Positions 31,514 to 55,963 of a DNA stretch of 64,000 nt are shown here, one piece after another. Below the pieces are notes generated by a model that searched no databases, was not told the DNA's origin, and saw only the letters and a program-made list of their open reading frames with translations. The position numbers and the translations under genes were made by a program. The stretch is taken from NCBI GenBank assembly GCA_018056425.1, contig JAGPFR010000003.1:1-64000 (forward strand). The letters are read 5' to 3'. The stretch's first letter is position 1; each line of letters starts with the position of its first letter. The stretch is from Lachnospiraceae bacterium. GTDB lineage: Bacteria > Bacillota > Clostridia > Lachnospirales > Lachnospiraceae.

Positions 31514-31697
31514 GGGCTAAAAATTCTGTGTTTTTCGGGTTTTTGTTAGCCCAGAATCCCTCAAAAACCTCTCTTTTTCAAGGTTCGGGCTAAAATTATC
31601 GCGAATTTTGGGATTTTTTTAGCCCGTTTCCCCTCTGAAACTTCCCTTTTTCCGGAAATGGGCTAAAATTCTCACGTTTTTCGGGATTTTGTTAGCC
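31514..31697. repeat. Array 1: three 73-bp units bounded by GGGCTAA/TTAGCCC
   Basis: Three 39-nt elements begin at 31514, 31587 and 31660, exactly 73 bases apart. Each opens with GGGCTAAAA and closes with TTAGCCC (the third with TTAGCCG), so each can fold into a hairpin. The 34-nt spacers share length but little sequence, except a GTTTCCCCT start after the second unit. The same layout and orientation recur in array 2 at 52113. The array lies between the terminator of the flagellar run and recD2. Confidence 0.85.
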
Positions 31698-31736
31698 GGC
31701 CGTACCTAAAAAGCCGGGCGCTCCGCCGTCAAAAAG

Positions 31737-31778
31737 TTTAATACCCCCGGCGGCGCGAAGCTCGACGGGGGTATTAAA
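31737..31778 (-). terminator. Strong bidirectional terminator after flgJ-like gene
   Basis: TTTAATACCCCC (31737-31748) and GGGGGTATTAAA (31767-31778) form a 12-bp stem with a GC-rich loop. On the minus strand CTTTTTG follows. It closes the mreB-flhO-flhP-flgJ run. Confidence 0.88.
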
Positions 31779-31792
31779 TATATGGAAATAGT

Positions 31793-32203
31793 TTAGTTGT
31801 TTTTAGGCTTGATGTATGCGACCTGATCAGCGGGTATAGAGTTCGGATCAAGGCCGTAGTTTCGGCGGAGCTGTTCGTAGAGCTGCTGTGCAAGTCCGAG
31901 TCCTTCTTTTTCGGTGGACTGTTTTGCAAGTTCCTGAATCGTCTCGCCCTTGAAGTAATCCACGAGGTTCTCGGTCGAAGCATCCTTGGATTCGTCGCCG
32001 TTTCGGATGACCGTCTTATCCATATGTTTGAAAACCTGCTCGAGAAGGTAACTTTCAAATTGTTTGCATACGGAAAGCAATTCGTCGTCGCTTGTCGCAT
32101 TCTGCGCTTTGCTTGAAAGAGAATTCGCAAGCTCGGTCGCCTGGGTCTGACCGGTAACGGAAGTATAGTAATCAGTGAGTGATGAAATGTTTGACAGATC
32201 CAT
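31793..32203 (-). CDS. flgJ: Rod-binding (FlgJ N-terminal-like) flagellar protein
   Basis: A 136-residue protein consisting only of the rod-binding domain: ELLSVCKQFESYLLEQVFKHMDKTV in the middle and VDYFKGETIQELAKQ after it (the usual family has F-x-x-ML-x-x-M in this place). The peptidoglycan hydrolase domain of enterobacterial FlgJ is missing, as is normal in Firmicutes. It probably caps the growing rod. The start is 3 bases after the FlgG-like gene stop, and it is the last gene of the run. Confidence 0.85.
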   Translation of the reverse strand: MDLSNISSLTDYYTSVTGQTQATELANSLSSKAQNATSDDELLSVCKQFESYLLEQVFKHMDKTVIRNGDESKDASTENLVDYFKGETIQELAKQSTEKEGLGLAQQLYEQLRRNYGLDPNSIPADQVAYIKPKNN

Positions 32204-32206
32204 TTA

Positions 32207-33025
32207 TTATCTCCTCAGGTTGTTGGCCTCTTCGAGCATTGTGTCTGAAGTGGTGATTACTTTGGAGTTAAGTTCGTAAGCTCTCTGAGTGGTGATCATG
32301 TTTACCATCTCGTCGGCAACCTGTACGTTGGAGCCTTCGAGGTAACCCTGGTTGATCGTACTCTTTTGAACGGAATTGTTGTTATATTCGTTGATCGCTC
32401 TTCCGCTTGCTGCGGTCTCTTTGAAAAGAGTATCGCCTTCGCGGGAAAGTCCGTTAGGATTATTGAACTGCCAGAGTCCGATGGTGATGCCGAGGGACTG
32501 AGGATTGTTCTTGTCATCGGGATAGCAGATCTCGCCGTCCTTGGTAACGGAAATTCTGCTGGTGACATACTTTGAATCAAGAACGATGGGATTTCCCTTT
32601 GTATCGAGAACGGGATTTCCGTCGGATGTTGCGAGCATGTTGCCGCCGTTTGAAGCAAGAGTCCATCCGAAGTTACCGTTTCTGGTGTAGTAGGTATTTC
32701 CGTCCGCTCCCTTTATTCCGTAAAAGCCATTACCGGAAATTGCAAAGGCGGTATCGCTTTCGGATGCAAAGAACGCGCCCTGAGTAAAACTCGTGTTGAG
32801 TGAAGATACTCTGGTTCCGAGACCGACCTGTGCGCTTCCGGGCTTGGTGTCGCCGTTAGCCGATGTGGTCTTGGTCTGGAGCTCCTGATAAAGAAGGTTC
32901 TTGAACTCAATGCTCTGGGATTTGAATCCGGTGGTATTGACGTTTGCAAGGTTATTGGCGATATTGTCAAGGCTGGTCTGCTGTGCGAGCATTCCGGTTG
33001 CGCCCGTCCATAAACTTCTTACCAT
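32207..33025 (-). CDS. flhP: Flagellar rod/hook protein, FlgG/FlhP type
   Basis: A 272-residue axial protein. N-terminal MVRSLWTGATGMLAQQ and the flagellar basal-body rod signature LDNIANNLANVNTTGFK. The C-terminus SNVQVADEMVNMITTQRAYELNSKVITTSD is the typical coiled end of FlgG proteins. In the cell it forms part of the distal rod. Position after an FlgF/FlhO-like gene and mreB/mbl matches the mbl-flhO-flhP order of Bacillus; by sequence alone flgG is an equally good name. Confidence 0.93.
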   Translation of the reverse strand: MVRSLWTGATGMLAQQTSLDNIANNLANVNTTGFKSQSIEFKNLLYQELQTKTTSANGDTKPGSAQVGLGTRVSSLNTSFTQGAFFASESDTAFAISGNGFYGIKGADGNTYYTRNGNFGWTLASNGGNMLATSDGNPVLDTKGNPIVLDSKYVTSRISVTKDGEICYPDDKNNPQSLGITIGLWQFNNPNGLSREGDTLFKETAASGRAINEYNNNSVQKSTINQGYLEGSNVQVADEMVNMITTQRAYELNSKVITTSDTMLEEANNLRR

Positions 33026-33047
33026 TGTTACCCTCCTTCTAAACTAC

Positions 33048-33824
33048 TTATACTTTACCGATCCTTGTAACTGCCGTCTCAAGTGTCGAGTCAATCGTCT
33101 GAATGATCTTCTGGTTGCTCTCATACTGTCTTGAGATAGTAATGAGGTTTACCATTTCCGTTACGGTAGAAACATTTGAAGCTTCGAGATATCCGCTGTA
33201 GATCTGACCGTCAGCTGTCTGCATCTCCGCGCCCTGTATTGGCTCCCAATATGTCTCTCCGTATTTTGCAAGATAATCGTAATCTTTAAAATCGGCAACC
33301 TGGATCTGTGCAATGACGTTGCCGTCCTGCATAACTCTTCCCTGTCTGTCGATACTGGTTTCTTTTAACGGATCTACTTTGATGTGTTTTCCGTTTACAT
33401 CGAGGAGATAATCGCCTTCGTGAGTTACGATGTTGCCCGAGTTATCAAGCTGGAACTGCCCGGCTCTTGAATACTTGGTGCTGGTCTCTCCTGCTTTATT
33501 GGTAAATTCGATCGCGAAGAATCCGTTTCCGCCGAGTGCAAGGTCGTAGGTGTTTCCGGTGATCCTGAATGAACCCTGTGACCAGTCGGTGTAGTTCTCA
33601 CCGATCTTGACTCCGCGGCTGGTGTAACCTTCTCTGGTAACGAGGTTATAACCCACGGTCGAATCCTTGATCTTAAGATCGAGTACCTGATCAAAGGACT
33701 GACTGGTCGTACCTTCTTTTTTATATCCGACGGTAGTGACATTGGCCATATTGTTACTGAGAACGTCCATACGATTCTGCTCGTTGATCATTCCCGTATA
33801 TGCTGTATATAGTCCTTTAACCAT
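33048..33824 (-). CDS. flhO: Flagellar rod/hook protein, FlgF/FlhO type
   Basis: A 258-residue axial protein with the rod signature MDVLSNNMANVTTVGYKKEG at the N-terminus and EASNVSTVTEMVNLITISRQYESNQKIIQTIDS at the C-terminus. Central hook-like domain includes LALGGNGFFAIEF. It probably forms the proximal part of the rod. An AAGGAG site precedes the ATG. A 40-base palindrome lies between the mreB stop and this gene. Confidence 0.92.
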   Translation of the reverse strand: MVKGLYTAYTGMINEQNRMDVLSNNMANVTTVGYKKEGTTSQSFDQVLDLKIKDSTVGYNLVTREGYTSRGVKIGENYTDWSQGSFRITGNTYDLALGGNGFFAIEFTNKAGETSTKYSRAGQFQLDNSGNIVTHEGDYLLDVNGKHIKVDPLKETSIDRQGRVMQDGNVIAQIQVADFKDYDYLAKYGETYWEPIQGAEMQTADGQIYSGYLEASNVSTVTEMVNLITISRQYESNQKIIQTIDSTLETAVTRIGKV

Positions 33825-33840
33825 ATATAATCTCCTTGAT

Positions 33841-33880
33841 GTGAGCCATGGGGACGTTTCATTTTGGCCAGGTGGCTCAC
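33841..33880. repeat. Dispersed palindrome, copy after mreB
   Basis: GTGAGCCA (33841-33848) and TGGCTCAC (33873-33880) are a perfect 8-bp inverted repeat; GGGGACGTTTC follows the left arm. It is 3 bases downstream of the mreB stop, within an otherwise continuous run of cotranscribed genes. Confidence 0.78.
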
Positions 33881-33882
33881 TA

Positions 33883-34881
33883 TTACTCTATCGAACTTCT
33901 GAATGTCGAGATGAACTCTACGTACTTACCGGTTCCTATAGCTACAGCGGTCATGGGGTCTTCTGCGGTCATACAGGTAATACCGGTTCTGTCGGTAATG
34001 AGATCTTCAAGTCCTCTGAGAAGCGATCCGCCTCCGGTAAGAACGATTCCGCGGTCTGCGATATCTGCGGAAAGTTCGGGAGGAGTTCTCTCAAGTACGG
34101 AGTGGATGGCTTCGACGATGCTGTTGGTGGAATCTTCGAGTGCCTCTTCCATCTCTTCACTGGTTACTTCGATGGATGTGGGAAGTCCCTTTACAATGTG
34201 ACGTCCCTTAACTTCCATCTTCTCCACTTCAGGTCTTCTGAAGCAGGTTCCGATCTTGATCTTTACATCCTCAGCGGTTCTTTCACCGATGCTGAGGCTG
34301 TGATTTTTTCTCATGTATTTAACGATCGCGTCGTTGAAGTCATCTCCGGCAACTTTGAGCGAAGCACTCTCAACCGCACTTCCGAGGGAAATGACTGCGA
34401 TGTCGGTGGTACCGCCGCCGATATCAACGATCATGTTTCCGCAGGGCTTGGAGATATCGATTCCCGCACCGATCGCAGCAGCAATGGGCTCCTCGATGAT
34501 AAGGGTCTCTCTTGCGCCTACCTGGTAAGCTGCATCTTCAACCGCTTTCTTCTCAACTTCGGTAACGCCTGAAGGTACGCAGACAGCGATCCTGGGCTTT
34601 CTGAGAAGTCTGTGTCCTACCGCCTTCTGAACGAAGTACTTCATCATCTTCTCGGTTACCTGGTAATCTGAAATAACTCCCTGCTTGAGGGGACGTACGG
34701 CTACGATATTTGCAGGTGTTCTGCCGAGCATAAGTCTTGCGTCTTCGCCGATAGCCTTTACCTTCTTGGTATTCTTATCAATTGCTACAACCGAGGGCTC
34801 TTTTAATACAACGCCCTTGCCTTTTATGTATACGAGAACGGAAGCCGTTCCGAGATCTATTCCGATGTCTAATGCTGCCAT
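33883..34881 (-). CDS. mbl: MreB/Mbl actin-like cell-shape protein
   Basis: A bacterial actin of 332 residues that guides lateral cell-wall synthesis beneath the membrane. Phosphate-1 loop DIGIDLGTASVLVY, RPLKQGVISDYQVTEKM, the phosphate-2 loop MIVDIGGGTTDIAVISLG and the adenosine motif GIVLTGGGSLLRGL are intact. The name mbl is chosen from context: in Bacillus subtilis mbl is followed by flhO and flhP, as here. Sequence alone cannot separate MreB, Mbl and MreBH. Confidence 0.93.
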   Translation of the reverse strand: MAALDIGIDLGTASVLVYIKGKGVVLKEPSVVAIDKNTKKVKAIGEDARLMLGRTPANIVAVRPLKQGVISDYQVTEKMMKYFVQKAVGHRLLRKPRIAVCVPSGVTEVEKKAVEDAAYQVGARETLIIEEPIAAAIGAGIDISKPCGNMIVDIGGGTTDIAVISLGSAVESASLKVAGDDFNDAIVKYMRKNHSLSIGERTAEDVKIKIGTCFRRPEVEKMEVKGRHIVKGLPTSIEVTSEEMEEALEDSTNSIVEAIHSVLERTPPELSADIADRGIVLTGGGSLLRGLEDLITDRTGITCMTAEDPMTAVAIGTGKYVEFISTFRSSIE

Positions 34882-34929
34882 TGCTAAAACCCCTTTCGGA
34901 TACTTACTTAAATATATATAATCCGATTT

Positions 34930-34949
34930 ATTATACCCGATTTTCGGGG
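34930..34949 (-). promoter_or_regulatory. mreB/mbl promoter with palindrome in the spacer
   Basis: Minus-strand TATAAT (34935-34930) is 49 bases before the mbl start. CCCGATTTTCGGG (34937-34949), an inverted repeat, fills most of the space where the -10/-35 spacer should be, so a repressor could bind there. The -35 is weak (TGTTAT). Confidence 0.5.
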
Positions 34950-34994
34950 AAAATAACAGAGCTTTTTGTCTTTATTGACGCACTGTCAACATAT

Positions 34995-35034
34995 ATAAAA
35001 AAACGCACGGAAAAGCATCTGCTGCGTCCGTGCG
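34995..35034 (-). terminator. Terminator of the cobalamin operon and its trailing GT2 gene
   Basis: CGCACGGA (35004-35011) and TCCGTGCG (35027-35034) form an 8-bp stem; on the minus strand seven T residues follow. It is 52 bases after the stop of the GT2 gene. Confidence 0.88.
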
Positions 35035-35086
35035 AATAGGTAGGGTTATCCTTACAGGATGTATATCGGAAAAGAAAACGAAAAGC

Positions 35087-35905
35087 TTAACCCCCACGAT
35101 AGATTTTTTTTACGAGGGAATTGTAGAGTCCGGAAAACGGACCTGACTGAATGGCATGACGTAAGGGCTGGAGCGTTACGATCATGTACAGCCTGCAATA
35201 GAAACGCTGCCACGGGGTAAAATACATGGATGTGATCTCTTTATGCTCATCAGCAGAGCGTTTGGCCTGCCTCGGATCATCGGAGTATCCGCCGCCTTCA
35301 TAGCGGCATACGGGCTCTTCGACATAAACGGTCGCAGTATTGTTTTTAAGAACGCTCCAAAGGAAGTGCTCGTAATCTGCGCGCACTTTGTACTCCGGTC
35401 TGAAGAGACGTTTTGCAAAACACTCCTTTGAATACAGGATTGCCTGATGGCAGGGGATATTTCTGTAGCAGACAAGAGGCGTGATCTTCGGTGATATATA
35501 CTCAACGCTTCCGGTCATGGATGAGAACCTGCTTCCGTAGAGGATCAGAGGCTTTGCTTCCGAAGGCGCGCCGTTTGATGAGATGTATTCATTTGCGGCT
35601 TTTTCAAATCGTGACAGAACATTTTCGTCGTAAAAGAAATCGCCGCAGTTCATGAAGATATAATAGTCACCTGAAGCATTTGAGATGCCCTGGTTCATGC
35701 CGTCGTAAATGCCGGTATCTTTCTGTTCAAAAATTCTGACACGGCTGTCGTTAAGTGCTTTGACCGCATCTATGGAACCGTCCTTTGAAAGACCGTCCTT
35801 AATGACGATCTCAAGATTGACATCCTTCTGGGAAAGGACGTTACGAACGGTCTCTGTCAGTTTTTCTCCCGCATTGAGGGATACGACTATTATTGAAAAC
35901 TTCAT
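35087..35905 (-). CDS. GT2 family glycosyltransferase, translationally coupled to the cobalamin operon
   Basis: A 272-residue GT2 enzyme of the WcaE-like type: FSIIVVSLNAGEKLTETV, VIKDGLSKDGS, EQKDTGIYDGMNQGI and FMNCGDFFYDE, then CHQAILYSKE. Its ATG overlaps the stop of the Cys-rich protein gene (ATGA), so it is read from the end of the cobalamin operon, though a role in cobalamin synthesis is not expected. A terminator follows. The junction upstream of its start carries a copy of the dispersed palindrome core. Confidence 0.9.
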   Translation of the reverse strand: MKFSIIVVSLNAGEKLTETVRNVLSQKDVNLEIVIKDGLSKDGSIDAVKALNDSRVRIFEQKDTGIYDGMNQGISNASGDYYIFMNCGDFFYDENVLSRFEKAANEYISSNGAPSEAKPLILYGSRFSSMTGSVEYISPKITPLVCYRNIPCHQAILYSKECFAKRLFRPEYKVRADYEHFLWSVLKNNTATVYVEEPVCRYEGGGYSDDPRQAKRSADEHKEITSMYFTPWQRFYCRLYMIVTLQPLRHAIQSGPFSGLYNSLVKKIYRGG

Positions 35906-36171
35906 GTTAATTCTCTTGGTGAAACTTCCCCGTGTCGCCTGTTCTTCAGGTATTCCATCACTTTATCGTAGTTGCCGGGAACATGAGGGAAGTTGCAGTT
36001 TTTGCAGCTCTTTATTTTTCTGTCCCCTTTATCGATTATAGTATAATTTCCCGGACAGGCAAGGTTATAGAGAGGACAAAAGCAAAAAAGACAGTTCATA
36101 TCCCCTTCGATATTATGACAGGGATAATACTGACACTCTTTATTTGCAAAAAACTTACTTGAGTTTTCCAT
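35902..36171 (-). CDS. Cysteine-rich small protein of cobalamin gene clusters
   Basis: An 89-residue protein with eight Cys in the pattern C-x4-C, C-x2-C-x-C, then a lone C and C-x2-C (CQYYPC, CLFCFC, CPGNY, CKNC), ending in a FPH motif. It matches the Cys-rich small domain often found beside or fused to cobalamin synthesis proteins; a metal-binding role is likely but unproved. It overlaps cbiA by 17 bases with AGAGG inside cbiA. Its last dozen codons are made from a sequence containing the GGGGAAGTTTC repeat core. Confidence 0.8.
   Translation of the reverse strand: MENSSKFFANKECQYYPCHNIEGDMNCLFCFCPLYNLACPGNYTIIDKGDRKIKSCKNCNFPHVPGNYDKVMEYLKNRRHGEVSPRELT
35918..35939. repeat. Dispersed palindrome core inside a gene end
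   Basis: The minus strand reads GGCGACACGGGGAAGTTTC followed by ACC, matching the copy at 18848-18878 over the core. It encodes the C-terminal residues R-H-G-E-V-S-P of the Cys-rich protein. Confidence 0.55.
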
Positions 36172-37543
36172 CCTTGACCTCTTTCATCTTGGCAATAAAG
36201 TCATCGATAAATGCGGGATTTGATCCGTAGTAAAAATGAGGAAAGCCCCAATATCCGTTATGATCCGTGATCATGCATTTCCAGATAGTTCCTCTTCGCG
36301 GTTTCTTCGCAGTGCAGCTATCACCATTCATATCCGAATCATAGTAGTGGAACTCATGGCCTTTCATGCCGGATAATTTGCCGCCTTCTTCGATCTGCAT
36401 ATATCCGAATCTTACAAGATGTCCGACGTACTTACATCTGCCGTCATAAGCACCAACGGTTTCGTATACATTCCCTTTATCATCCTCGACAGATTTTCCC
36501 AGATACATAAATCCGCCGCACTCGGCAAGCGATGGGATGTTTGAATCCGTAAGCTTCCTGATCGAAGAAAGCATGCTCTTATTTGCGGACAGTTTCTCCA
36601 GATAAAGCTCCGGATATCCTCCTCCGAGCAGCAGTCCGTCCGCATCTTCCGGAACCGACTCATCTTCAAGAGGTGAGAAGTATTTTATCTTCACTCCTCT
36701 TTCTTCAAACATTTCGATATTATCACGGTAGTAAAAACAAAACGCATCATCAAGCGCAACTGCAAGTGTAAGGCCATCGCCTGCATGTGATGAAAAAGCC
36801 TGTGTTTCATCCGGTGCGTTTACAGCAGGTGCACTTTGCATGATCTCGATCATCGAATCCATATCGATATTTTCTTCAAAAACTTCTGATGCGGTTTCTA
36901 TCTTCTTATCGGTTTCTTCCGATTCGTTCGGAAGTTTTAATCCGAGATGTCTGCTCTCAAAATCTATGCCCTTTGTCTTCGGGAAAAATCCGAGCATTTT
37001 AATATCAGGCCTTAAGACGCTCAATGCTTTCTCCAGTTCGGGTAAAAGCTGTTTATAAAAGCCTGCGCTGATATTATTCAGGATTATTCCTTTAATAAGA
37101 TTCTTATCATCATCGTGGGTGACGCCTTTGATCATGGAGATGATTGTTCTTCCGACTTTGCCCGCATTTACGACGAGAACGACAGGTGTCGAAGTAACTG
37201 CCGCAATCTCATAACATGAACCTGAAACGGAAGTTACATCATTTCCGTCGTATAATCCCATGACGCCTTCGATCACGGCATAACCTCCTTCAGCTTTTGA
37301 AAGAGATTTTCCAATCCTTTCTTCTCCCATAAAGAAGATATCGAGATTTCTGCTTTCTATCCCGAATGCCTTTTTATGGAACATGGGATCTATGTAATCC
37401 GGACCGCATTTGTATGACTTAAGATCATGGCCTCTTTTTTGAAGGCATCTTAAGAAGGCACAGGTAAGAGTTGTCTTTCCGCTTCCGCTTGTCATACCTG
37501 CGATCAAAAGTCTGTTTACATTAAATGTTTTATTTCCGCTCAT
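36155..37543 (-). CDS. cbiA: Cobyrinate a,c-diamide synthase
   Basis: ATP- and glutamine-dependent amidation of the a and c side chains of cob(II)yrinate. 462 residues from the ATG at 37543, whose codon overlaps the upstream stop (ATGA). N-terminal dethiobiotin-synthetase-like ATPase: AGMTSGSGKTTLTCAF, YKCGPDYIDPMFH, EGVMGLYDG. C-terminal class I glutamine amidotransferase: LLLGGGYPELY and the nucleophile Cys in SLAECGGFMYL. The catalytic His is in GHEFHY. Complete by length and motifs. Confidence 0.96.
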   Translation of the reverse strand: MSGNKTFNVNRLLIAGMTSGSGKTTLTCAFLRCLQKRGHDLKSYKCGPDYIDPMFHKKAFGIESRNLDIFFMGEERIGKSLSKAEGGYAVIEGVMGLYDGNDVTSVSGSCYEIAAVTSTPVVLVVNAGKVGRTIISMIKGVTHDDDKNLIKGIILNNISAGFYKQLLPELEKALSVLRPDIKMLGFFPKTKGIDFESRHLGLKLPNESEETDKKIETASEVFEENIDMDSMIEIMQSAPAVNAPDETQAFSSHAGDGLTLAVALDDAFCFYYRDNIEMFEERGVKIKYFSPLEDESVPEDADGLLLGGGYPELYLEKLSANKSMLSSIRKLTDSNIPSLAECGGFMYLGKSVEDDKGNVYETVGAYDGRCKYVGHLVRFGYMQIEEGGKLSGMKGHEFHYYDSDMNGDSCTAKKPRRGTIWKCMITDHNGYWGFPHFYYGSNPAFIDDFIAKMKEVKDGKLK

Positions 37544-39525: not shown

Positions 39526-40256
39526 ATATCGTATCCTCTGGGTGTAATGAGCATGTCACCCGTGATCTTTGTTTTGGAATTTCCGATAAAGACAGTAACA
39601 AACATATCTACATTTTCACCTACAAGCTCAGAAAGTGTGCAGAGCTTCTTTTCCATACCGTTCCTTCCGATATTTCGTACATACCCGCATGAAGTATCGG
39701 GTGATAAAACCGTAAGCAGGATCTGACATGCACGCTTCAGATAATCGGATCTTTTTTTACTCGAGGGATTATAGATTGCCATGCAAAAATCACCCTCGGC
39801 AGCTTTAATAAGTCTTTTCTCGATAACTTCCCAGGGTGTGAGAAGATCGCTTAAACTGATCACGCAAAAATCATGAGATAAAGGAGCGCCAAGGATTGCA
39901 CTTCCGCTCAGAGCAGCTGTTACTCCCGGAACGATCTCGACATTCCTGAAGTTATTCTGTCCGGCAATTTCAAGAAGAGGCGATGCCATTCCGTATACGC
40001 CTGAATCCCCGCTGCAGATAAGAGCTACGGTCTTACCGGAAAGTGCAAACTCCACGCATTTTTCGCAGCGCTCTATTTCTCCGCGCATTCCGTTTTCGTA
40101 AAACTCTTTACCGGAAAATTCATCTCTTACAAGATCAATATATGTTTTGTATCCGGCTATGATGTCGCACTTTTCAAGAACGGATCTTGCCCTGAGCGTC
40201 ATATCATCCGCATTTCCCGGACCTATTCCTACAACATATATTTTACCGTCACTCAT
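39522..40256 (-). CDS. cbiH: Cobalt-factor III / precorrin-3B C17-methyltransferase
   Basis: A 244-residue SAM-dependent methyltransferase that drives ring contraction. Start at the ATG at 40256, with GGAG 8 bases upstream. KIYVVGIGPGNADDMT at the N-terminus, CSGDSGVYGMASP in the SAM-binding loop, GVTAALSGSAILGAPL and HDFCVISLSDLLTPWE are typical of CbiH/CobJ. No CbiG fusion, which occurs elsewhere; cbiG is the adjacent separate gene. Confidence 0.95.
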   Translation of the reverse strand: MSDGKIYVVGIGPGNADDMTLRARSVLEKCDIIAGYKTYIDLVRDEFSGKEFYENGMRGEIERCEKCVEFALSGKTVALICSGDSGVYGMASPLLEIAGQNNFRNVEIVPGVTAALSGSAILGAPLSHDFCVISLSDLLTPWEVIEKRLIKAAEGDFCMAIYNPSSKKRSDYLKRACQILLTVLSPDTSCGYVRNIGRNGMEKKLCTLSELVGENVDMFVTVFIGNSKTKITGDMLITPRGYDI

Positions 40257-40268
40257 TTTCACACTCCG

Positions 40269-43136: not shown

Positions 43137-43145
43137 TATTATCCT

Positions 43146-45824: not shown

Positions 45825-46383
45825 CGGTCTCCAGATCCATTACCCAGCAATCCAGGTTCTTAGTCATAAAGTGAAAATAGTTTTCACCGGTCAGGTGACT
45901 TAAGATCCCCATGATATTTCCGCCGTGACAAACTATCGCAATACAATCATCCGTCCTCATGTCACCGAGTGCTTTCTTAAGTCCTTCCAGAGATCTTGCT
46001 ATAAGATCTTCTCTTTTCTCCGCACCCGGAATCGGATCTTCACCGTTTGAATCGATCCACTTCTGATAGACCGCATCCCCGTTCAGATCTGCGTAGTTCT
46101 TGCCCTCGAAATATCCGAAGTCAGTTTCGGTCAATTCATCGATCACAGTGATATCTCTGTCATCAAAAAGGATCCGTGCAGTCTCCCTTGCTCTTAACAT
46201 TGGGCCGCTGTAAACCTTTTTTATCTGTCTGTAAAAAGAAGCCGGAATCCGCGATCTTAATTCCCGGGCAGCTCTTATTCCTTCTTCGCATAAAGGCTGA
46301 TCGGTCCGGAGGCCTATATATCTCTTTTCGATATTTCCGATCGTCACGCCGTGTCTTATCAGATAGACTTTTTTATTTGCCAT
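45766..46383 (-). CDS. cobC: Histidine phosphatase, probable alpha-ribazole phosphatase
   Basis: A 205-residue histidine phosphatase with the phosphohistidine motif YLIRHGVT, the arginine-bearing SGPMLRARETARI, the catalytic Glu in ELTETDFGYFEGKNYADL and the second His in IVCHGGNIMGIL. By context it removes the phosphate from alpha-ribazole phosphate or adenosylcobalamin phosphate. Sequence alone would allow other phosphoglycerate-mutase-like activities. The ATG overlaps the cobS stop (TGATG). Confidence 0.88.
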   Translation of the reverse strand: MANKKVYLIRHGVTIGNIEKRYIGLRTDQPLCEEGIRAARELRSRIPASFYRQIKKVYSGPMLRARETARILFDDRDITVIDELTETDFGYFEGKNYADLNGDAVYQKWIDSNGEDPIPGAEKREDLIARSLEGLKKALGDMRTDDCIAIVCHGGNIMGILSHLTGENYFHFMTKNLDCWVMDLETDGKNIVATAYDRVDLRNFT

Positions 46384-47168
46384 CAAAGTAACCTCAAAAT
46401 CAAATACATGACCGCAGTCGCAAGAACCGCACCGGTTTCTGATACGCTGACAAGCATGCCGGCGGTATCACCCGTAACTCCTCCGAATTCTTTTTTCGTT
46501 TTATATTTGTAATAAAGAGTATATCCTGCAAAGAATACAAGTGCGGGAAGAGCCGTTATCGGATCAAGGATCAGCATCGCTGCAGCCGAGATAACAAGCT
46601 GCAGACACAGGAGTACGACACTGCTCTTTTTTCTGTTACCGGTTTCCTTTGAAAGCATTCCGCTTTTCTTCGCTTTCTTTAAAAAGAGAGAAGTAAGCCC
46701 CGATATGCATCTGCTTACCACAAAGATCAGTGCGATCACGATCACGCTTTCTTTGGAAAGTGCATCGAAGCTTAGGATAAAAGCAGATGATGCAAGTGCG
46801 GTCAGGATAAGCTTAACAAGTGAGATAACCGAGAATGCGCCGATGTGAGGATCTTTTAAGATCTCAAGTTTCTTCGCAGGTTCTCCGTATGAATTAAGTG
46901 CATCCGCGGTATCCATAAATCCGTCCAAATGAAATCCGCCCGTAACAAGGATTGGGATAAGTACCGAAACGATCGCCCTTACGAAGGGATTAATATGTGT
47001 GCTTAAAGGACCGATGTTTACAAGACAGATAAGCGCGCCGATAACCGCACCGACAAGAGGGAAGAAATCAAGACTGGAAGACATGTCATCTTCCTTCCAT
47101 TCAAATCTCGGCATCGGGATCCTTGAATAAAGCGTAAATGAAATTGCTATCCTTCTGAAAATCTTCAA
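46383..47168 (-). CDS. cobS: Adenosylcobinamide-GDP ribazoletransferase (cobalamin synthase)
   Basis: A 261-residue integral membrane protein with about six helices. It joins adenosylcobinamide-GDP and alpha-ribazole (phosphate). YSRIPMPRFEWKEDDM, FFPLVGAVIG, the acidic catalytic-site motif GGFHLDGFMDTADAL, and KILKDPHIGAFSV-like EILKDPHIGAFSV are highly typical; GGVTGDTAGML near the C-terminus is the second conserved site. Two bases separate it from cobU. Confidence 0.96.
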   Translation of the reverse strand: MKIFRRIAISFTLYSRIPMPRFEWKEDDMSSSLDFFPLVGAVIGALICLVNIGPLSTHINPFVRAIVSVLIPILVTGGFHLDGFMDTADALNSYGEPAKKLEILKDPHIGAFSVISLVKLILTALASSAFILSFDALSKESVIVIALIFVVSRCISGLTSLFLKKAKKSGMLSKETGNRKKSSVVLLCLQLVISAAAMLILDPITALPALVFFAGYTLYYKYKTKKEFGGVTGDTAGMLVSVSETGAVLATAVMYLILRLL

Positions 47169-47169
47169 A

Positions 47170-47697
47170 TTAATTCCCTTCGTTTTTAGAAAGCAGATCG
47201 TAAACCCTGTCGCAGTAGTCCCTGATCAGTTCATTGGTTCTGCTAAGCGTCTTCACATAATTACGTGTAGAATCGTCATACCCGTCGCCGTCTTTATCAT
47301 ACTCATCAGTGACGATGATAAGGTTGTGTACTTTCTCCGACAGTTCTTTTATTTCCGCAGAAACCTTCGCCGCTACGGATTTGGGGTTCGCATCTTTACA
47401 CTGATCATCAAAGATGTAATTGGCAACAAGATTTGCAACGCACTCAAGAAGTACCGTCGATAGGCACGCATCATTTTTATCATCAAGTATTCCTGCAATG
47501 CCTCGCTGCTTTTCTATTGTGATAAATCCCTTACCTTCTCTTTGCTTCCTGTGTTTGATAACGCGCTCCCTGCCCGCATCGTCCATTACGTTCATCGTGG
47601 CAAGGTAATATACTTTTTCATCACCCGTTTCGAGAGCAAGTTTCTCGGCAAGCGCAGATTTTCCGCTATTTGATTTCCCCACTACAAGCGTGATCAT
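47170..47697 (-). CDS. cobU: Adenosylcobinamide kinase / guanylyltransferase, divergent CobU
   Basis: A 175-residue CobU-like P-loop protein. Walker A reads VVGKSNSGKSALAEKL, lacking the usual GGARSGKS form. YLATM and the His-bearing KHRKQREGKGFITIE correspond to the guanylylation site. The second half (IIVTDEYDKDGDG, RNYVKTLSRTNELIRDYCD) aligns only loosely with the usual SNEVG and FRD-x-x-G-x-x-N motifs. Context between cobT and cobS strongly supports the role. Its start overlaps the cobT stop (ATGA). Confidence 0.85.
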   Translation of the reverse strand: MITLVVGKSNSGKSALAEKLALETGDEKVYYLATMNVMDDAGRERVIKHRKQREGKGFITIEKQRGIAGILDDKNDACLSTVLLECVANLVANYIFDDQCKDANPKSVAAKVSAEIKELSEKVHNLIIVTDEYDKDGDGYDDSTRNYVKTLSRTNELIRDYCDRVYDLLSKNEGN

Positions 47698-48764
47698 TTA
47701 TCATCAAACCTTTCGTACTCCTTTATCGGAGTATCGGAAAAATAAGTTCCGCTCATATACATCGACATTGCCATATCAAGAAGAGGAAACATCATAACCG
47801 CTCCGCTTCCTTCACCGAGTGCAAGATTTGCGTATATCACGGGATGTAAGTTAAGTTCTTTCGAAAGAACCTTCATTCCGATTTCTTTTCCCAGATGGGA
47901 TGCAATCATGTAATCCCTGCATCCGGGTAAAAGGCGATCTGCGATAAGTGCCGAGACCATGCTGATAAATCCGTCGATTACAACAGGCACCTTATAAATT
48001 GCGCCTCCGATAAAAACACCGGTAAGACCCGCAATATCAAGTCCTCCGACTTTGCAAAGTGCATCGAAAGCATCGGTTAGTCCATCCGGGAAATGATATT
48101 CAAGGGCTTCGGTTATTACTTCAACTTTACGTGCAAGTCCTTCGTCCGAAAGACCCGCGCCTCTTCCCGTGCACTGCTTTACGTCAAGTCCTGTGAGGAT
48201 ACTCAAAAGTGCAGATGATGTAGTGGTATTTCCGATCCCCATCTCACCGGTTGCGATGATCGAGATTCCTTTATCTTTAAATTCCTTTACGCAGTCTGTT
48301 CCTGCTTCGATAGCTTTTATGGCTTCTTCGGAATTCATCGCAGGCTCGTGCAGGAAATTTCTTGTTCCTCTCGCGACTTTCTTATCGCGGGCGCCTTCGG
48401 GAGTATCATCAGAGTCTATTCCTATATCAACAGTCATTACTTCTGCCGGATAATCCTTAAGCATGATGCCGACAGAGCTTTTCTTCCTGCCCATAAGCGC
48501 AGCCACTTCGTAAGTAACTTCCTTGCCTGTCTGGGATACACCCTCACTGACAATTCCGTTATCCGCACACATGATGATCAGTCCTTTTTTCGAAAGGTTA
48601 AAATCAGTGCTTCCTTTTATCGCAGCGATCCTGCAAACGGCATCTTCAAACGTGCCGAGTCCGTCAATGGGCTTTGCAAGAGCATCCCATTTTTTCTTTG
48701 CAAGAAGTTTTATATTTTCATCAGGCTTCTCTATCTTGACAGAGAGCAGCTTTTCCTTAGTCAT
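47694..48764 (-). CDS. cobT: Nicotinate-nucleotide-dimethylbenzimidazole phosphoribosyltransferase
   Basis: A 356-residue enzyme that activates the lower-ligand base as its alpha-ribotide. KPIDGLGTFEDAVCRIA, IIMCADNGIVSEGVSQTG, the substrate loop TGEMGIGNTTTSSAL, GRGAGLSDEG and the catalytic Glu in LALGEGSGAVMMFP are in place. No gene for the oxygen-independent 5,6-dimethylbenzimidazole route (bza) is next to it, so the native lower base is not known. ATGA overlap with the fusion gene upstream. Confidence 0.96.
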   Translation of the reverse strand: MTKEKLLSVKIEKPDENIKLLAKKKWDALAKPIDGLGTFEDAVCRIAAIKGSTDFNLSKKGLIIMCADNGIVSEGVSQTGKEVTYEVAALMGRKKSSVGIMLKDYPAEVMTVDIGIDSDDTPEGARDKKVARGTRNFLHEPAMNSEEAIKAIEAGTDCVKEFKDKGISIIATGEMGIGNTTTSSALLSILTGLDVKQCTGRGAGLSDEGLARKVEVITEALEYHFPDGLTDAFDALCKVGGLDIAGLTGVFIGGAIYKVPVVIDGFISMVSALIADRLLPGCRDYMIASHLGKEIGMKVLSKELNLHPVIYANLALGEGSGAVMMFPLLDMAMSMYMSGTYFSDTPIKEYERFDDK

Positions 48765-51082
48765 CTGTTTATTCCAAGTACCTTGTAGATATAATCCATA
48801 TCGAGGCTGTTTCTCAGATTCTCCGCAAGCTTATCGTAGACGACTTCCCTGCGGTCCTTATAATCTTCAACAGATCCTGTGTTAATGCTCTTTCCGCGGG
48901 ATTTTGAAACTGCCGAGGCAACTCCGCTGAGGATTTCTTTTTTATCGAAGAATCCGTGCACATAAGTTCCGTAGACATTACCAAGACAGTATCCTGTTTT
49001 GCCGGAAGTAAACTCGGTAAGATCCGTGCTCGGAACGGTTTCTCCCATATGGATCTCATATCCGGTTACGGGCGAGTCTTTGAGCGTGTCAAGGACACCG
49101 GTTGCATTTACAACTCTTCCGCTGTAAACAGTTCTGATCTTCTCACTTCCGATCACGGTCCTGACAGGAAGTAGTCCCAGTCCGGTTTCACTTCCGCCTT
49201 CCTCGGAGCATTCGGGATCTTCAACGCTCTCTCCGAGCATCTGATACCCGCCGCAGATTCCGATGACTACCGTGCCTTCTTTTGCCTTCTTAATAATATT
49301 ATCATACAGGCCCGATCTCTTAAGTTCCCTGAGGTCTCCGATGGTATTCTTGGATCCGGGAATGATCAGTATATCCGGGTCACCCATTTCCGAAGGAGCA
49401 TCAACATACCTTACAGATGCATCCTCAATCTGGTCGAAGGTATCCAGATCCGTGAAGTTTGAGATAGCCTTAAGCTTTATGACAGCAACATCAAACTTTC
49501 CGGGCTTCTTATTAAGGAATCTTTCGGAAAGCGAATCCTCATCATCTATCTTAAGATCCATGTAGGGAACCACTCCGACAACCTTCGTTCTTCCTTTATC
49601 CTCAAGGATATTTATTCCACTTTCGAACAGCTTTCCGTCGCCTCTGAATTTATTTACTATAAGACCCTTTACGCGTTTTCTTTCTTCGGAAGTAAGAAGG
49701 TCCAGTGTTCCGAGCAGCTGCGGGAAGATTCCTCCCCTGTCGATATCACCTACGAGAAGAACCGGTGCATCTATCATCCCGGCAAGTCCCATGTTTACGA
49801 TATCGCCTTCTTTAAGATTGAGTTCAACAGGAGAACCCGCACCCTCAACGACAATGATGTCATTATTTTCCGCAAGGGTATCGTATGCCTTCATGATCTC
49901 GGGAATATAGTCCTTCTTATGCCGGAAGTAATCCATCGCCTTCATATTGCCGACCACCTTACCGTTTACGATAACCTGAGAACCCATTGCGGATGTGGGC
50001 TTAAGCAGGATCGGATTCATCTCTGCAAGCGGACGGACCTTAGCACACTCCGCCTGAACAACCTGCGCCCTTCCCATCTCAAGGCCTTCATCCGTGATAT
50101 ATGAATTGAGTGCCATGTTCTGCGACTTGAAAGGAGACACTTTATAACCGTCATTTGCAAAGATCCTGCAAAGTCCCGCGGCAATAAGACTTTTTCCGGC
50201 ATTCGACATCGTGCCCTGGATCATGATGACTTTTGCCTTGCGGGAAGAATGCTCCGGATCAGGTGACAGGGTCGAAGCATCAGAAGACTTATTCACCTCT
50301 TCGGACCCGGATCCGTTTTCCCAATACTGATCACCGAGAAGATCCGACTTAACGCCCTCGATCTTATATAACTTCCTTATAAAGCTTTCGGTACATACTT
50401 CATGAGGAGTTCCGATCTTAAGGATCTTTCCTTCTCCTACTGCAACAACAATATCCGATACCTTCCTTGCGATATCGAGTTCGTGTAGTGACATAAGGAC
50501 TGCAATGTTTTTTTCTTTTGCGATGCCGCATATCTTATTCAACAGATCTATCTTATATCTGATATCCAGATAGGATGTGGGCTCATCAAGGATAAGGACG
50601 TCCGGTTCCTGACAGATTGCCTTGGCAAGGAGCACGCGCTGCTTTTGTCCGTCGCTGAGCTGAGCAAAATATAAGTCTGCAAGTTCTACAGTATCTGTCT
50701 GCTCCATCGCATCAAGAACCTTAGCTTTATCTTCTGATGATAAAATTCCGAGTTTTCCGGTATATGGATATCTTCCGACTTCGACAACTTCCCTGCAGGT
50801 CATGAGCTCCGGTTTTATTTTCTCCGTCATGACCATGGACATGGTCTTTGCGATATCATACGCAGGCATCTCAGATTTATCCCTGCCTGCGAGGATAATC
50901 ACTCCGCCGCGGCTTTTAAGTTCACCGGTCAGAGTCTTAAGAAGCGTTGTTTTTCCGGAGCCGTTTGGTCCGATCAGAGTAACGATCTTACCGGGTCGTG
51001 CTTCAATGCAGATATCCGAGATCAGATCACTTTCATAGCCGATATTTAAATGTTTGGTTTTTATTCCTGATTCTTCGGGCAT
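48761..51082 (-). CDS. cbiP: Fusion of a B12/siderophore-type ABC ATPase with cobyric acid synthase CbiP
   Basis: One 773-residue protein. Residues 1-250 are a BtuD/FecE-type ABC ATPase: Walker A GPNGSGKT (38-45), signature LSDGQ (142-146), Walker B DVLILDEPTS (161-170) and the switch His in MSLHELD. An acidic Ser-rich linker (about 252-282) joins it to a complete CbiP/CobQ: GTMSNAGKS (290-298), PFKSQNMALNSY, the amidotransferase nucleophile Cys610 in GICGGYQ and His709 in TYVHG. CbiP amidates four side chains of the corrin. The permease gene lies 2 bases upstream (51084), so the ATPase half is its obvious partner. Confidence 0.95.
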   Translation of the reverse strand: MPEESGIKTKHLNIGYESDLISDICIEARPGKIVTLIGPNGSGKTTLLKTLTGELKSRGGVIILAGRDKSEMPAYDIAKTMSMVMTEKIKPELMTCREVVEVGRYPYTGKLGILSSEDKAKVLDAMEQTDTVELADLYFAQLSDGQKQRVLLAKAICQEPDVLILDEPTSYLDIRYKIDLLNKICGIAKEKNIAVLMSLHELDIARKVSDIVVAVGEGKILKIGTPHEVCTESFIRKLYKIEGVKSDLLGDQYWENGSGSEEVNKSSDASTLSPDPEHSSRKAKVIMIQGTMSNAGKSLIAAGLCRIFANDGYKVSPFKSQNMALNSYITDEGLEMGRAQVVQAECAKVRPLAEMNPILLKPTSAMGSQVIVNGKVVGNMKAMDYFRHKKDYIPEIMKAYDTLAENNDIIVVEGAGSPVELNLKEGDIVNMGLAGMIDAPVLLVGDIDRGGIFPQLLGTLDLLTSEERKRVKGLIVNKFRGDGKLFESGINILEDKGRTKVVGVVPYMDLKIDDEDSLSERFLNKKPGKFDVAVIKLKAISNFTDLDTFDQIEDASVRYVDAPSEMGDPDILIIPGSKNTIGDLRELKRSGLYDNIIKKAKEGTVVIGICGGYQMLGESVEDPECSEEGGSETGLGLLPVRTVIGSEKIRTVYSGRVVNATGVLDTLKDSPVTGYEIHMGETVPSTDLTEFTSGKTGYCLGNVYGTYVHGFFDKKEILSGVASAVSKSRGKSINTGSVEDYKDRREVVYDKLAENLRNSLDMDYIYKVLGINR

Positions 51083-51083
51083 T

Positions 51084-52088
51084 TCAGTGATCCTTTTTTC
51101 TTTTCAACATTACATATATGACAACGGGCACGAGCAGAACTGCCGTCACCGAACTTATACTTACTTCAGTTGGTGCAAACAGGGTTCTTGCGATCGCATC
51201 ACTTAAGAGCGTTACGATCGATCCGCCTATGAAGGATGCCGGAATTACGATTTCCGCGCGGTCTGTTTTGAGGGACGATCTTACCAGATGAGGAACCGCA
51301 ATCCCGACGAATGATATGGGACCCGCAAACGCTGTAACACATGCTGCAAGCAGGCTTGATACAAGTATCAAAACAATGCGCAGCATTCTGATATTTACAC
51401 CGGCATTTCTCGCGTAGTTTTCCCCGAGCCTGTATGCGTTCATCGGCTTAACGATCGTAAGTGAGATGAAAAGGCAGAATAGTATTACTACGGTAAATAC
51501 ACTGATCTCTGACCAGTTTATTCCGGATAAACTTCCCATCGACCAGTTATGGAGATTTACGATATTCGAATCATCCGCAAAGGTTACAACGAAATCAGTG
51601 ATCGCAGAGCAGATGTATCCGATCATGATCCCGCATACAACAAGTATGCCCATGCTCCTAACCTTCTGCGAGATTGCAAGCACAAATGCCATTACAATAA
51701 GCGAACCGATAAATGCGGAGACCACCATTCCGGCAAGGCCGATGTAATTTCCACTGTACAATACGTAGATCAGCATAAGTGCAACGAAGAGCTTAGCACC
51801 GGAAGAAATGCCCAGCACGTAAGGTCCGACTATCGGATTTGCAAAGAATGTCTGCAAGAGATACCCCGACAGAGCCAGGGCCCCGCCCAGTACAAGTGCC
51901 GCCACTGCCCTCGGAAGCCTGATGTTCATGATGATCGCTGCGGTAGTTTCATCCGCCCTGCCCGCAAAGACATCCATGATCTCCCGTGCGGTGACATGCG
52001 TGCTTCCGAGCAGGATGTTCATCGCAAGCAGCCCCGCCGCCAGCAATATGCATATTGTGAAAAATAGTACGCCTCTTTTTCTGCTCAT
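51084..52088 (-). CDS. btuC: ABC transporter permease, FecCD/BtuC family
   Basis: A 334-residue permease with nine to ten membrane helices. RLPRAVAALVLGGALALSGYLLQ, NPIVGPYVLGISSGA, the ATPase-contact region GENYARNAGVNIRMLR and GPISFVGIAVPHLVR are typical of B12, siderophore and haem importers. It pairs with the binding protein at 52429 and the ATPase half of the fusion. Whether it moves cobalamin, cobinamide, cobalt-sirohydrochlorin or something else cannot be read from sequence. Weak ribosome binding site (AGGG). Confidence 0.93.
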   Translation of the reverse strand: MSRKRGVLFFTICILLAAGLLAMNILLGSTHVTAREIMDVFAGRADETTAAIIMNIRLPRAVAALVLGGALALSGYLLQTFFANPIVGPYVLGISSGAKLFVALMLIYVLYSGNYIGLAGMVVSAFIGSLIVMAFVLAISQKVRSMGILVVCGIMIGYICSAITDFVVTFADDSNIVNLHNWSMGSLSGINWSEISVFTVVILFCLFISLTIVKPMNAYRLGENYARNAGVNIRMLRIVLILVSSLLAACVTAFAGPISFVGIAVPHLVRSSLKTDRAEIVIPASFIGGSIVTLLSDAIARTLFAPTEVSISSVTAVLLVPVVIYVMLKRKKDH

Positions 52089-52112
52089 CTTTTGAACCCT
52101 GTCTTAAGGTGC

Positions 52113-52372
52113 GGGCTAATAAATTGTCCCATTTCCGGTTTTTTTTAGCCCATTTCGCCTGCCGGAAGCTCTTTTGGCTTCTGAGGGGGCTAATAGAACG
52201 CCCCATTTCCTGCTTTTATTAGCCCGTTTCCCCTGTCGGGAGCTCTTTTGGCTTCTGAGGAGGCTAATAGAACGCCCCATTTCCTACTCTTATTAGCCCG
52301 TTTCCCCGCCGGGAGCTCTTTTGGCTTCTGAGGGGGCTAATAGAACGCCCCATTTCCGGCATTTTTTAGCCA
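52113..52372. repeat. Array 2: four 73-74 bp units bounded by GGGCTAA/TTAGCCC
   Basis: Four 39-nt elements begin at 52113, 52187, 52261 and 52334 (spacings 74, 74 and 73). The inner two are nearly identical; the outer two diverge. Each starts with (G/A)GGCTAATA and ends with TTAGCC; spacers of 34-35 nt share GTTTCCCC and CTCTTTTGGCTTCTGAGG. Same orientation and unit layout as array 1, 20.6 kb away. It fills the 340-base gap between btuF and btuC inside the cobalamin operon; nothing else is seen in that gap. Confidence 0.9.
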
Positions 52373-55945: not shown

Positions 55946-55963
55946 TTGTTAAATTGCTACACG

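What the first reader, a model, noticed from the sequence alone, without database searches (positions are those of the whole stretch)
31514..52372. Two far-apart arrays of the same 73-74 bp hairpin repeat
Seen in sequence: array 1 (31514-31697) has units starting at 31514, 31587 and 31660; array 2 (52113-52372) has units at 52113, 52187, 52261 and 52334. Every unit is a 39-nt element with GGGCTAA and TTAGCCC ends followed by a 34-35 nt spacer, in the same orientation. Element interiors differ between arrays while the length and ends are kept, which argues for a selected structure rather than a recent duplication. I know no named repeat class with this form. It could be a multi-hairpin RNA, a protein-binding array or remnants of a small mobile element.
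Basis: seen in the sequence. Interest (0 to 1): 0.72.

Follow-up and report, generated by a model that had tools for sequence, protein, structure and literature searches.

The report
Nuclease with helically phased DNA arrays
The two repeat arrays look like part of an undescribed bacterial system in which small nuclease-like proteins each have their own paired DNA sites, repeated at whole turns of the double helix next to the nuclease gene and, in some genomes, scattered between other genes.

Summary
The arrays are rows of inverted half-sites (GGCTNNNA, 37-38 bp outer to outer) at 73-75 bp; chance expectation is near zero. The window's genome holds 53 exact elements, in at least 16 places. A scan of 84,980 species genomes found 60 stretches, all with Lachnospiraceae, Pseudobutyrivibrio, Eubacterium or Clostridiales titles. 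Strong conservation is confined to the half-sites; the interior does not pair above expectation. A ~270-aa PD-(D/E)XK-like protein without a credible Pfam or NCBIfam family lies near these arrays in 10 of 20 genomes. Its distant paralogs carry tandem inverted-repeat arrays of other sequences: 43 of 70 nuclease loci against 1 of 19 random stretches. Periods cluster at multiples of 10.5 bp (R = 0.86, n = 53). In one subfamily a 35-bp dyad stays constant while the linker is 37, 48, 59 or 80 bp. Arrays lie mostly 5' of the nuclease gene (68 of 78). I read this as a nuclease-array system acting on double-stranded DNA, like REPtrons in layout but not in enzyme or architecture. Binding, cutting and dispersal are inferred.

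The parts
31515..31551 (.). array 1, element 1: two inverted half-sites
31588..31624 (.). array 1, element 2
31661..31697 (.). array 1, element 3 (array ends here)
52114..52150 (.). array 2, element 1
52188..52224 (.). array 2, element 2
52262..52298 (.). array 2, element 3
52335..52371 (.). array 2, element 4 (array ends here)
29071..31317 (-). RecD2-type helicase gene, 5' end faces array 1 (context only)
   Evidence: Pfam HHH_RecD2, AAA_19; ORF
31793..32203 (-). rod-binding protein gene, 3' end faces array 1 (context only)
   Evidence: Pfam Rod-binding
51084..52088 (-). FecCD-type permease gene downstream of array 2 (context only)
   Evidence: Pfam FecCD
52429..53970 (-). periplasmic-binding-protein gene upstream of array 2 (context only); this gene and the permease gene lie 7 bp apart in the array-less relative G320
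   Evidence: Pfam Peripla_BP_2

Best explanation
The arrays are double-stranded DNA binding sites of a dedicated PD-(D/E)XK-like nuclease encoded elsewhere in the same genome (its pieces lie at the ends of contigs C58 and C45, outside the window). Each 37-38-bp element is a dyad of two ~8-bp half-sites about three helical turns apart. Elements repeat at whole numbers of turns (5, 6, 7 or 8, depending on the nuclease copy; 7 here), so that half-sites lie on one face of the helix. The protein family has many paralogs; about two thirds of the loci examined carry a detectable array, usually just 5' of the nuclease gene and with a half-site sequence of its own; in some genomes, this one included, arrays of the same type are also scattered between genes. 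SHOWN: copy number, spacing, conservation concentrated in half-sites, linkage of array to nuclease gene, quantised periods, half-sites that differ between paralogs. INFERRED: that the protein binds the arrays as a dimer (one subunit per half-site); that it cuts or nicks them; that break and repair keeps units of one array similar while arrays drift apart; that the upstream array also controls the nuclease gene; and that the dispersed arrays spread as non-autonomous copies, as REP sequences are thought to do with their own enzyme.
For: Linkage: the ~270-aa protein lies near GGCT-type arrays in 10 of 20 genomes (21 labels, two of them one genome), between two arrays in L064, L067 and L174; two more of the 20 (RUG13451, RM5) show it at an array. 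Paralogs (27-44% identical) carry arrays of other sequences. De novo detector: 18 of 27 nuclease rows (15 not GGCT-type, five with a single unit pair) against 0 of 25 FecCD loci and 0 of 135 shuffles; 43 of 70 against 1 of 19 random 10-kb stretches; 15 of 26 in the class-level set; 103 of 153 in the pooled, partly redundant set. Genus: orthologs at 73% identity or more in 3 of 31 genomes (G000, G299, G313), all three rich in arrays. Phasing: modal periods of 53 arrays give R = 0.86 at 10.5 bp, phase -0.009 turn; without half-sites containing GCT n = 38, R = 0.83. Natural experiment: in nucleases 56-79% identical with GATGC half-sites, the dyad GCATC..GATGC is 35 bp in all six loci examined while the other interval is mostly 37 (four loci, period 62), 48 (L216, 73) or 59 and once 80 (L189, 84 and 105). 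Specificity: half-site similarity follows N-terminal identity (r = 0.376, 0 of 2000 permutations as high); four paralogs of 49-85% identity share TACGCGC. Enzyme: invariant RSKSE, PDF and EH-G in 22 aligned members; C-terminal match to PADLOC PDC-S68 (3e-27). Window genome: a second system, TGATGC at 62 bp, at its nuclease (C81) and at C38 and C41.
Against: No binding, cutting or expression data. 50 of 153 pooled nuclease loci show no array with this detector. Of 14 array-bearing genomes searched, 8 have a relative of 48% identity or more (two of these matches contain an in-frame stop, G709 and G714); 5 have none, and G41, whose record is not marked as a MAG, has only 33-34%. G312 and G323 have arrays but no ortholog; they are 84% and 80% complete. 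In the window's own genome the nuclease gene is split over contig ends and its first ~30 residues lie in another frame, so it may be inactive or misassembled. The motif ends in EH and not in the usual (D/E)XK. Loci are related, so p-values are nominal. The detector's tie-break favours element lengths near 38, so constant element length outside the GGCT and GATGC types is weak evidence. Some periods fit poorly: 60 and 77, 71 and 139 in a two-unit array. Pooled pairing at position 7 is above expectation (0.86/0.74). The half-site/protein correlation may be plain co-inheritance of a linked locus; the nuclease domain gives nearly the same r (0.343).
Confidence: 0.7

Rival explanations
1. Regulatory reading: the protein binds the arrays but acts as an autorepressor and regulator that kept a nuclease fold; the upstream array is its operator, the dispersed arrays are a regulon or a sink that titrates it.
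For: 68 of 78 deduplicated arrays lie 5' of the nuclease gene, 53 of these 68 within 220 bp of the start. Array 2 sits inside a likely transport operon and an array is present at the same site in four species.
Against: Among 59 GGCT-type arrays between co-directional genes (nuclease-linked ones included) 37 are nearer the 3' end of the upstream gene than the start of the next (medians 86 and 156 bp), unlike operators. Flanking genes are unrelated to each other (names or by eye). The E, PD and EH residues are invariant across 22 paralogs, which argues for retained catalysis.
Confidence: 0.3
2. Arrays are sites of another, unknown chromosome-organising protein; the nuclease genes are merely a frequent neighbour.
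For: GGCT-type arrays occur in genomes in which no close nuclease was found. A one-face array every 7 turns is what a nucleoid protein might want.
Against: Paralogs with unrelated half-sites are each linked to arrays of their own, and half-site tracks protein sequence. A chromosome organiser would not need a nuclease gene at each private array.
Confidence: 0.1
3. Passive, selfish palindromic repeats (REP/MITE-like) that spread and are only tolerated; the nuclease plays no part.
For: Dispersed; 89 of 90 arrays do not overlap an ORF of 150 aa or more by over 60 bp; array present or absent at an orthologous site (340-661 bp against 7 bp between the genes).
Against: Interiors and linkers change while half-sites and spacing are kept to 1-2 bp across genera; a passive repeat would decay evenly. 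Linkage to one gene family is far above controls.
Confidence: 0.1
4. Multi-hairpin structured RNA.
For: Arms are complementary; positions 5-7 pair above expectation (0.99/0.91, 0.94/0.83, 0.86/0.74), which I put down to arms of the same half-site type. Three of 14 element-strand folds have z of -2 or lower against shuffled interiors.
Against: Interior positions 9-18 pair at or below expectation, position 14 being level; arms differ at position 7 in 31 of 54 elements of the window's genome; no Rfam match; periods follow the DNA helix.
Confidence: 0.05
5. Defence device: arrays hold or license the nuclease on the chromosome so that it can be released against invading DNA.
For: The nuclease domain matches the C-terminal domain of PADLOC candidate defence protein PDC-S68. 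Several paralogs per genome (up to 8 matches, with 8 candidates scored per genome) with diverse half-sites.
Against: No defence neighbours were looked for systematically; a nuclease targeted to self sites would be dangerous; PDC-S68 is only a candidate and matches in one domain.
Confidence: 0.1

Closest known systems
REP/REPIN elements with RAYT (TnpA-REP), 'REPtrons'
   Same: Short palindromic repeats, largely extragenic, unevenly spread among species, dispersed, linked to a dedicated gene, enzyme and repeat co-evolve (abstract and outline of PMC8266576; passages of PMC3733652).
   Different: Enzyme is PD-(D/E)XK-like, not an HUH transposase; no GTAG or CGTC tag; repeats are head-to-tail arrays at whole helical turns, by their pattern double-stranded half-sites and not hairpins with a 2-20 nt loop; found in Clostridia, a group not named in the main text of PMC3733652 (0 occurrences of Clostridi or Firmicutes).
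TIRtrons / TIRYT
   Same: Gene flanked by private inverted repeats that can also form a repeat family (passages of PMC3733652).
   Different: Tyrosine (HUH) transposase gene; long terminal inverted repeats; no phased tandem arrays described in the passages seen.
CRISPR and the non-CRISPR regularly interspaced arrays of the FLSHclust study
   Same: Regular repeat-linker arrays beside nuclease genes (passages of PMC10910872).
   Different: There, spacers are hypervariable. Here the repeat unit is not an identical sequence: only half-sites are constant, and element interior and linker change together, being alike in many arrays (interiors of the first two units at least 80% identical in 30 of 68) and not in others (under 50% in 15 of 68). 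The nuclease there is an AddB-like helicase-nuclease.
PADLOC PDC-S68
   Same: C-terminal ~110 residues match.
   Different: PDC-S68 models are 1202-1273 positions long; the present protein is ~270 aa with another N-terminal part.
Centromere and iteron arrays of plasmids (sopC and the like; recalled, no call)
   Same: Inverted half-sites in tandem at a near-integral number of turns.
   Different: Single locus on a replicon with a partition or initiator protein; here chromosomal contigs, many loci, nuclease partner.

Membership tests
REP / REPtron | GTAG or CGTC tetranucleotide tag at one end of the palindrome | tested here: not met
   strong columns of the GGCT-type units are the two half-sites; no such tag
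REP / REPtron | cognate HUH (RAYT) transposase gene flanked by the repeats | tested here: inconclusive
   the flanking-gene clustering brought out a nuclease, not a transposase; the genome was not searched for a Y1 transposase family
REP / REPtron | stem of 5-13 bp with loop of 2-20 nt acting as a folded strand | tested here: not met
   8-nt arms around a 21-22-nt interior whose positions do not pair above expectation
REP / REPtron | extragenic, dispersed, species-variable, linked to a dedicated enzyme gene | tested here: met
CRISPR array | near-identical repeats with unrelated spacers | tested here: not met
   only 8-nt half-sites are constant; unit interiors are alike in many arrays and different in others
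Described structured RNA (Rfam 15) | match at gathering score | tested here: not met
   only a cobalamin riboswitch elsewhere in the window; best relaxed match over the arrays E = 0.11
PD-(D/E)XK nuclease superfamily | conserved acidic core residues (E, PD, (D/E)XK) | tested here: inconclusive
   invariant E165, P194-D195-F196, E210-H211 in 22 members, but EH and not (D/E)XK; match to PDC-S68 C-terminus; DUF790 at 5e-5 in one member
PD-(D/E)XK nuclease superfamily | fold | not testable with these tools
Insertion sequence or transposon | target-site duplication and terminal repeats bounding the unit | not tested
   only presence or absence at one orthologous site was compared

The most novel reading that the evidence does not exclude
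A new class of genetic element of Clostridia: a fast-diversifying family of stand-alone site-specific nucleases, each with a private, helically phased array of dyad sites that it binds, maintains and spreads. Geometrically these would be natural counterparts of paired zinc-finger or TALE nucleases (two DNA-binding arms three turns apart with the cutting domains between), with dozens of different specificities readable from the arrays.
Probability: 0.45. Interest if true: 0.92.

Novelty: categorically new. Interest (0 to 1): 0.85.

Why it matters
If right, a common gene family (101 of 299 genomes sampled from the window's family, nearly all of different genera) without a credible Pfam or NCBIfam name comes with its own DNA targets beside many of its copies, so that binding specificity can be read off and tested. 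It would add a second, unrelated enzyme class to the idea of enzyme-linked bacterial palindromic repeats, explain a set of intergenic repeats in gut and rumen bacteria, and offer a natural series in which site spacing changes by whole helical turns.

Tried and rejected
Rfam at gathering and relaxed thresholds: nothing credible for the arrays. Viral collection: the one pattern hit, L125, looks like a chance match inside a coding sequence; the 9 relatives of the protein found in viral contigs match the nuclease domain only (residues about 145-267). Plasmid matches cover only C-terminal parts (8 records, mostly AAA-family genes). Of three phage-collection matches one covers 89% but lies on an unannotated 4.2-kb faecal scaffold marked UNVERIFIED. 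PDB sequence searches gave nothing credible. Pfam and NCBIfam scans of 22 members gave only scattered weak matches, the best DUF790 at 5e-5 and AbiGI at 6e-4 in one member each. An idea from memory that the N-terminal part is an AP2/integrase-like DNA-binding domain found no support there and is not claimed. The motif CCTCAGAA recurs in elements and linkers of the genus, but in the window it is not significant (5 against 2.8 expected). Promoter and terminator scans told little. Hairpin RNA and CRISPR readings were rejected for the reasons given. Literature: eight searches of the open-access library that bear on novelty and one on homing endonucleases listed no paper that I recognised as describing this system; two of them returned no paper at all. 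Subscription papers and preprints are not covered, so 'not in print' is not claimed.
Full report
1. THE OBSERVATION. Both arrays are present as described. The stable unit is a 37-nt dyad, GGCTAA...TTAGCC, at periods 73, 73 (array 1) and 74, 74, 73 (array 2). Eleven matches of GGGCTAA-N15..40-TTAGCC in the window (both strands) compare with 0.00 in shuffles. No Rfam family matches.

2. MORE COPIES IN THIS GENOME. The window is in contig 31 of an 84-contig, 2.56-Mb assembly, 90.8% complete. It holds 53 exact elements on the forward reading (reversed-pattern control: 3) and 37 two-element matches (control 0). I looked at 16 places with elements of this type, 15 of them with two or more units. The list of places was cut by the tool, so there may be more. 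A 32-nt match on C43 was set aside as chance-like (L021).

3. RELATIVES. In the genus, exact GGCTAA elements occur in 5 of 31 genomes (52, 37, 13, 4 and 2 copies). With half-sites widened to GGCTNNNR, five genomes are clearly positive (G000, G299, G312, G313, G323); seven more have 1-2 hits, which is control level; 19 have none, among them G321 with its 2 copies. In the family, 5 of 299 genomes matched the two-element GGCTAA pattern: G000, G073 and G089 richly, two by single hits. A scan of 84,980 species genomes with a five-half-site pattern at exactly 73 bp gave 60 stretches, from 19 organisms by my count of the titles, all Lachnospiraceae, Pseudobutyrivibrio, Eubacterium or Clostridiales. 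In all 60 I re-detected two or more units. Half-site types include GGCTAATA, GGCTATAA, GGCTGTAA, GGCTAAGA/G, GGCTAACA and GGCTATGA.

4. SAME PLACE, DIFFERENT SEQUENCE. The array 1 site (RecD2 / rod-binding protein) carries arrays in G299, G312 and RGIG10136 (= G313), and the array 2 site (binding protein / FecCD permease) in the same three, with other interiors and unit numbers. At the array 2 site the gap between the two genes is 340, 661, 648 and 484 bp in G000, G299, G313 and G312 but 7 bp in G320, whose permease is 80% identical. The more distant G316 (48%) has 117 bp to the called start; two further loci could not be read. G320 thus has an array-less site.

5. WHAT IS CONSERVED. I took 86 arrays with 390 37-nt elements and, for genomes with three or more arrays, compared pairing within elements with that expected from mixing arrays of one genome. 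Pairing exceeds expectation at positions 5-7 (0.99/0.91, 0.94/0.83, 0.86/0.74). Positions 9-18 are at or below expectation, position 14 being level (0.34/0.33). In 68 arrays with strict 37/36/37 geometry the strong columns are the half-sites; a few others are weak (0.35-0.64 bit). The element filter required similarity of the 8-nt arms, so only positions 9 onward are an unbiased test. In the window's genome the arms differ at position 7 in 31 of 54 elements, and in G073 the two letters at position 8 combine freely (GA/GG 13, GG/GA 12, GG/GG 8, GA/GA 6); tandem copies inflate such counts. So the arms look like double-stranded half-sites and not like a long stem. Within arrays, the interiors of the first two units are at least 80% identical in 30 of 68 and under 50% in 15 of 68: units may differ almost throughout and still keep half-sites and spacing. 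Of 90 arrays, 89 do not overlap an ORF of 150 aa or more by over 60 bp (the one that does overlaps the nuclease's own ORF); 59 lie between co-directional genes, 7 convergent, 5 divergent, 19 at edges.

6. A PARTNER GENE. Clustering up to four ORFs on each side (within 4 kb) of 90 arrays brought out a ~270-aa protein near arrays under 10 of 21 labels. Two labels, G313 and RGIG10136, are one genome, so I count 10 of 20. It is often beside comEC-like and holA-like genes (names by eye). It lies between two arrays in L064, L067 and L174, and 3 bp from an array in L131. Two further genomes, RUG13451 and RM5, show it at an array. In RUI398 an array stands between the comEC-like and holA-like genes with no such protein found. 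It has no credible Pfam or NCBIfam family. Its C-terminal ~110 residues match PADLOC PDC-S68 (3e-27). Twenty-two members share RSKSE, PDF and EH-G.

7. PARALOGS HAVE ARRAYS OF THEIR OWN. In the genus, orthologs at 73% identity or more are in 3 of 31 genomes, all array-rich; more distant relatives (27-44%) occur in 13 genomes outside the five GGCT-array genomes and as second copies in G000, G299 and G313. Around them, tandem inverted repeats of other sequence and period appear: 18 of 27 rows (three rows are pieces of one gene; 15 positives are not GGCT-type; five have a single pair) against 0 of 25 FecCD loci and 0 of 135 shuffles. In the family, 101 of 299 genomes have the protein; of 70 loci examined, 43 have arrays (35 with three or more units), against 1 of 19 random 10-kb stretches from the same set of genomes. 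At class level 34 of 391 genomes have it and 15 of 26 fetched loci have arrays, some loci being places already seen. Pooled and partly redundant: 103 of 153 loci. Dropped before the later statistics: 17 of 103 for element length outside 33-43 or a protein under 225 aa, and 8 of 86 as identical proteins, leaving 78; for the period test 25 more (two-unit arrays or periods over 110), leaving 53.

8. PERIODS FOLLOW THE HELIX. The modal periods (n = 53) are 52-53 (8), 60 (1), 62-64 (23), 73-74 (16), 77 (1) and 83-86 (4). At 10.5 bp R = 0.86 and the phase is -0.009 turn; without half-sites containing GCT, n = 38 and R = 0.83. An earlier count that was not deduplicated gave R = 0.85, n = 42, with similar values from 10 to 11 bp, so the helical repeat itself is not finely resolved. 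L282 (71) was an outlier there and was dropped. The cleanest case is the GATGC subfamily, whose nucleases are 56-79% identical. In all six loci the dyad GCATC..GATGC measures 35 bp in nearly every copy, while the interval between dyads is mostly 37 bp (L203, L215, L223, L224), 48 bp (L216), or 59 and once 80 bp (L189): steps of 11, 11 and 21 bp. This is the strongest single sign of double-stranded, face-dependent use. It also shows that where both intervals are near 37 bp the detector can name either as the element.

9. POSITION AND CO-VARIATION. 68 of 78 arrays lie 5' of the nuclease gene (53 of them within 220 bp), 8 lie 3' and 2 overlap its ORF. Half-site similarity rises with N-terminal identity (r = 0.376; 0 of 2000 permutations as high; the nuclease domain gives 0.343), which also fits co-inheritance. 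Four paralogs of 49-85% identity share TACGCGC; their periods are 64, 64, 126 and, in a two-unit array, 139. In the three genomes compared, distant paralogs have different half-sites, while three paralogs of G713 at 56-58% identity have similar ones.

10. A SECOND SYSTEM IN THE WINDOW'S GENOME. TGATGC elements at 62 bp lie beside the second nuclease gene (C81) and at C38 and C41. G299 has them at its ortholog and at one further place; G323 has one place; one hit in G308 looks like chance.

11. AGAINST. Of 14 array-bearing genomes, 8 have a relative of 48% identity or more (two of these matches contain an in-frame stop), one (G41) has only 33-34%, and 5 have none. G312 and G323 have arrays without an ortholog. 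50 of 153 nuclease loci have no detected array. The window genome's own gene is split over contig ends with its N-terminus in another frame. No structure could be predicted. Nothing shows binding, cutting or movement.

12. READING. A nuclease-array system is the simplest account of linkage, paralog-specific half-sites and helical phasing. Whether it is selfish upkeep of repeats, control of the nuclease gene, or both, is open. The nearest known layout is the REPtron. Two of its defining features were tested and not met, so I do not file it there, but it may work alike. Nine searches of the open library listed nothing that I recognised as this system. Papers seen: PMC3733652 and PMC10910872 in passages, PMC8266576 abstract and outline, the rest in search listings only.

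Noticed in passing
window 55732-55951 (-): Cobalamin riboswitch (Rfam 68.2 bits) upstream of the transport genes that flank array 2, so array 2 probably lies inside a B12-type transport operon.
   Followed up: partly
L080, L082-L090 (G299): Arrays are bipartite: a block of GGCTAATA-type units abuts a block of GGCTATAA-type units at the same period, as if two specificities share one array.
   Followed up: partly
window genome G000, contigs C58 (4546-4851) and C45 (3-763): The cognate nuclease gene is split over two contig ends near arrays, and its first ~30 residues are in another frame; real damage or assembly error is not decided.
   Followed up: partly
L152 (RUI398), 4119-4301: An array stands between comEC-like and holA-like genes where other genomes also have the nuclease; no relative was found in that genome. 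It may be an array that has outlived its nuclease.
   Followed up: no
L285 7007-7186 (random control stretch of G221): The only control stretch with an array (half-site TTGGGCA, spacings 92 and 51) may be a dispersed array of another paralog.
   Followed up: no
elements and linkers of L022, L083-L085, L089, L098, window 52179-52333: Motif CCTCAGAA / TTCTGAGG or a near variant recurs in elements and linkers of different arrays in the genus; not significant in the window, origin unknown.
   Followed up: partly
L142, L145, L152: Two different half-site types in equal number (GGCTATGA with GGCTAAGA; GGCTAACA with GGCTATAA), which suggests polar, heterotypic dyads; pairing within single elements was not checked there.
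   Followed up: no
L205 2443-2785, L197 2318-2816, L199 947-1060: Other tandem repeats (34, 115 and 35 bp) near nuclease paralogs that the dyad detector does not count; they may be decayed or different arrays.
   Followed up: no
window 31738-31778: Strong inverted repeat next to T/A-rich sequence just past the rod-binding protein gene, by eye a terminator between that gene and array 1; the consensus scan did not report it.
   Followed up: no
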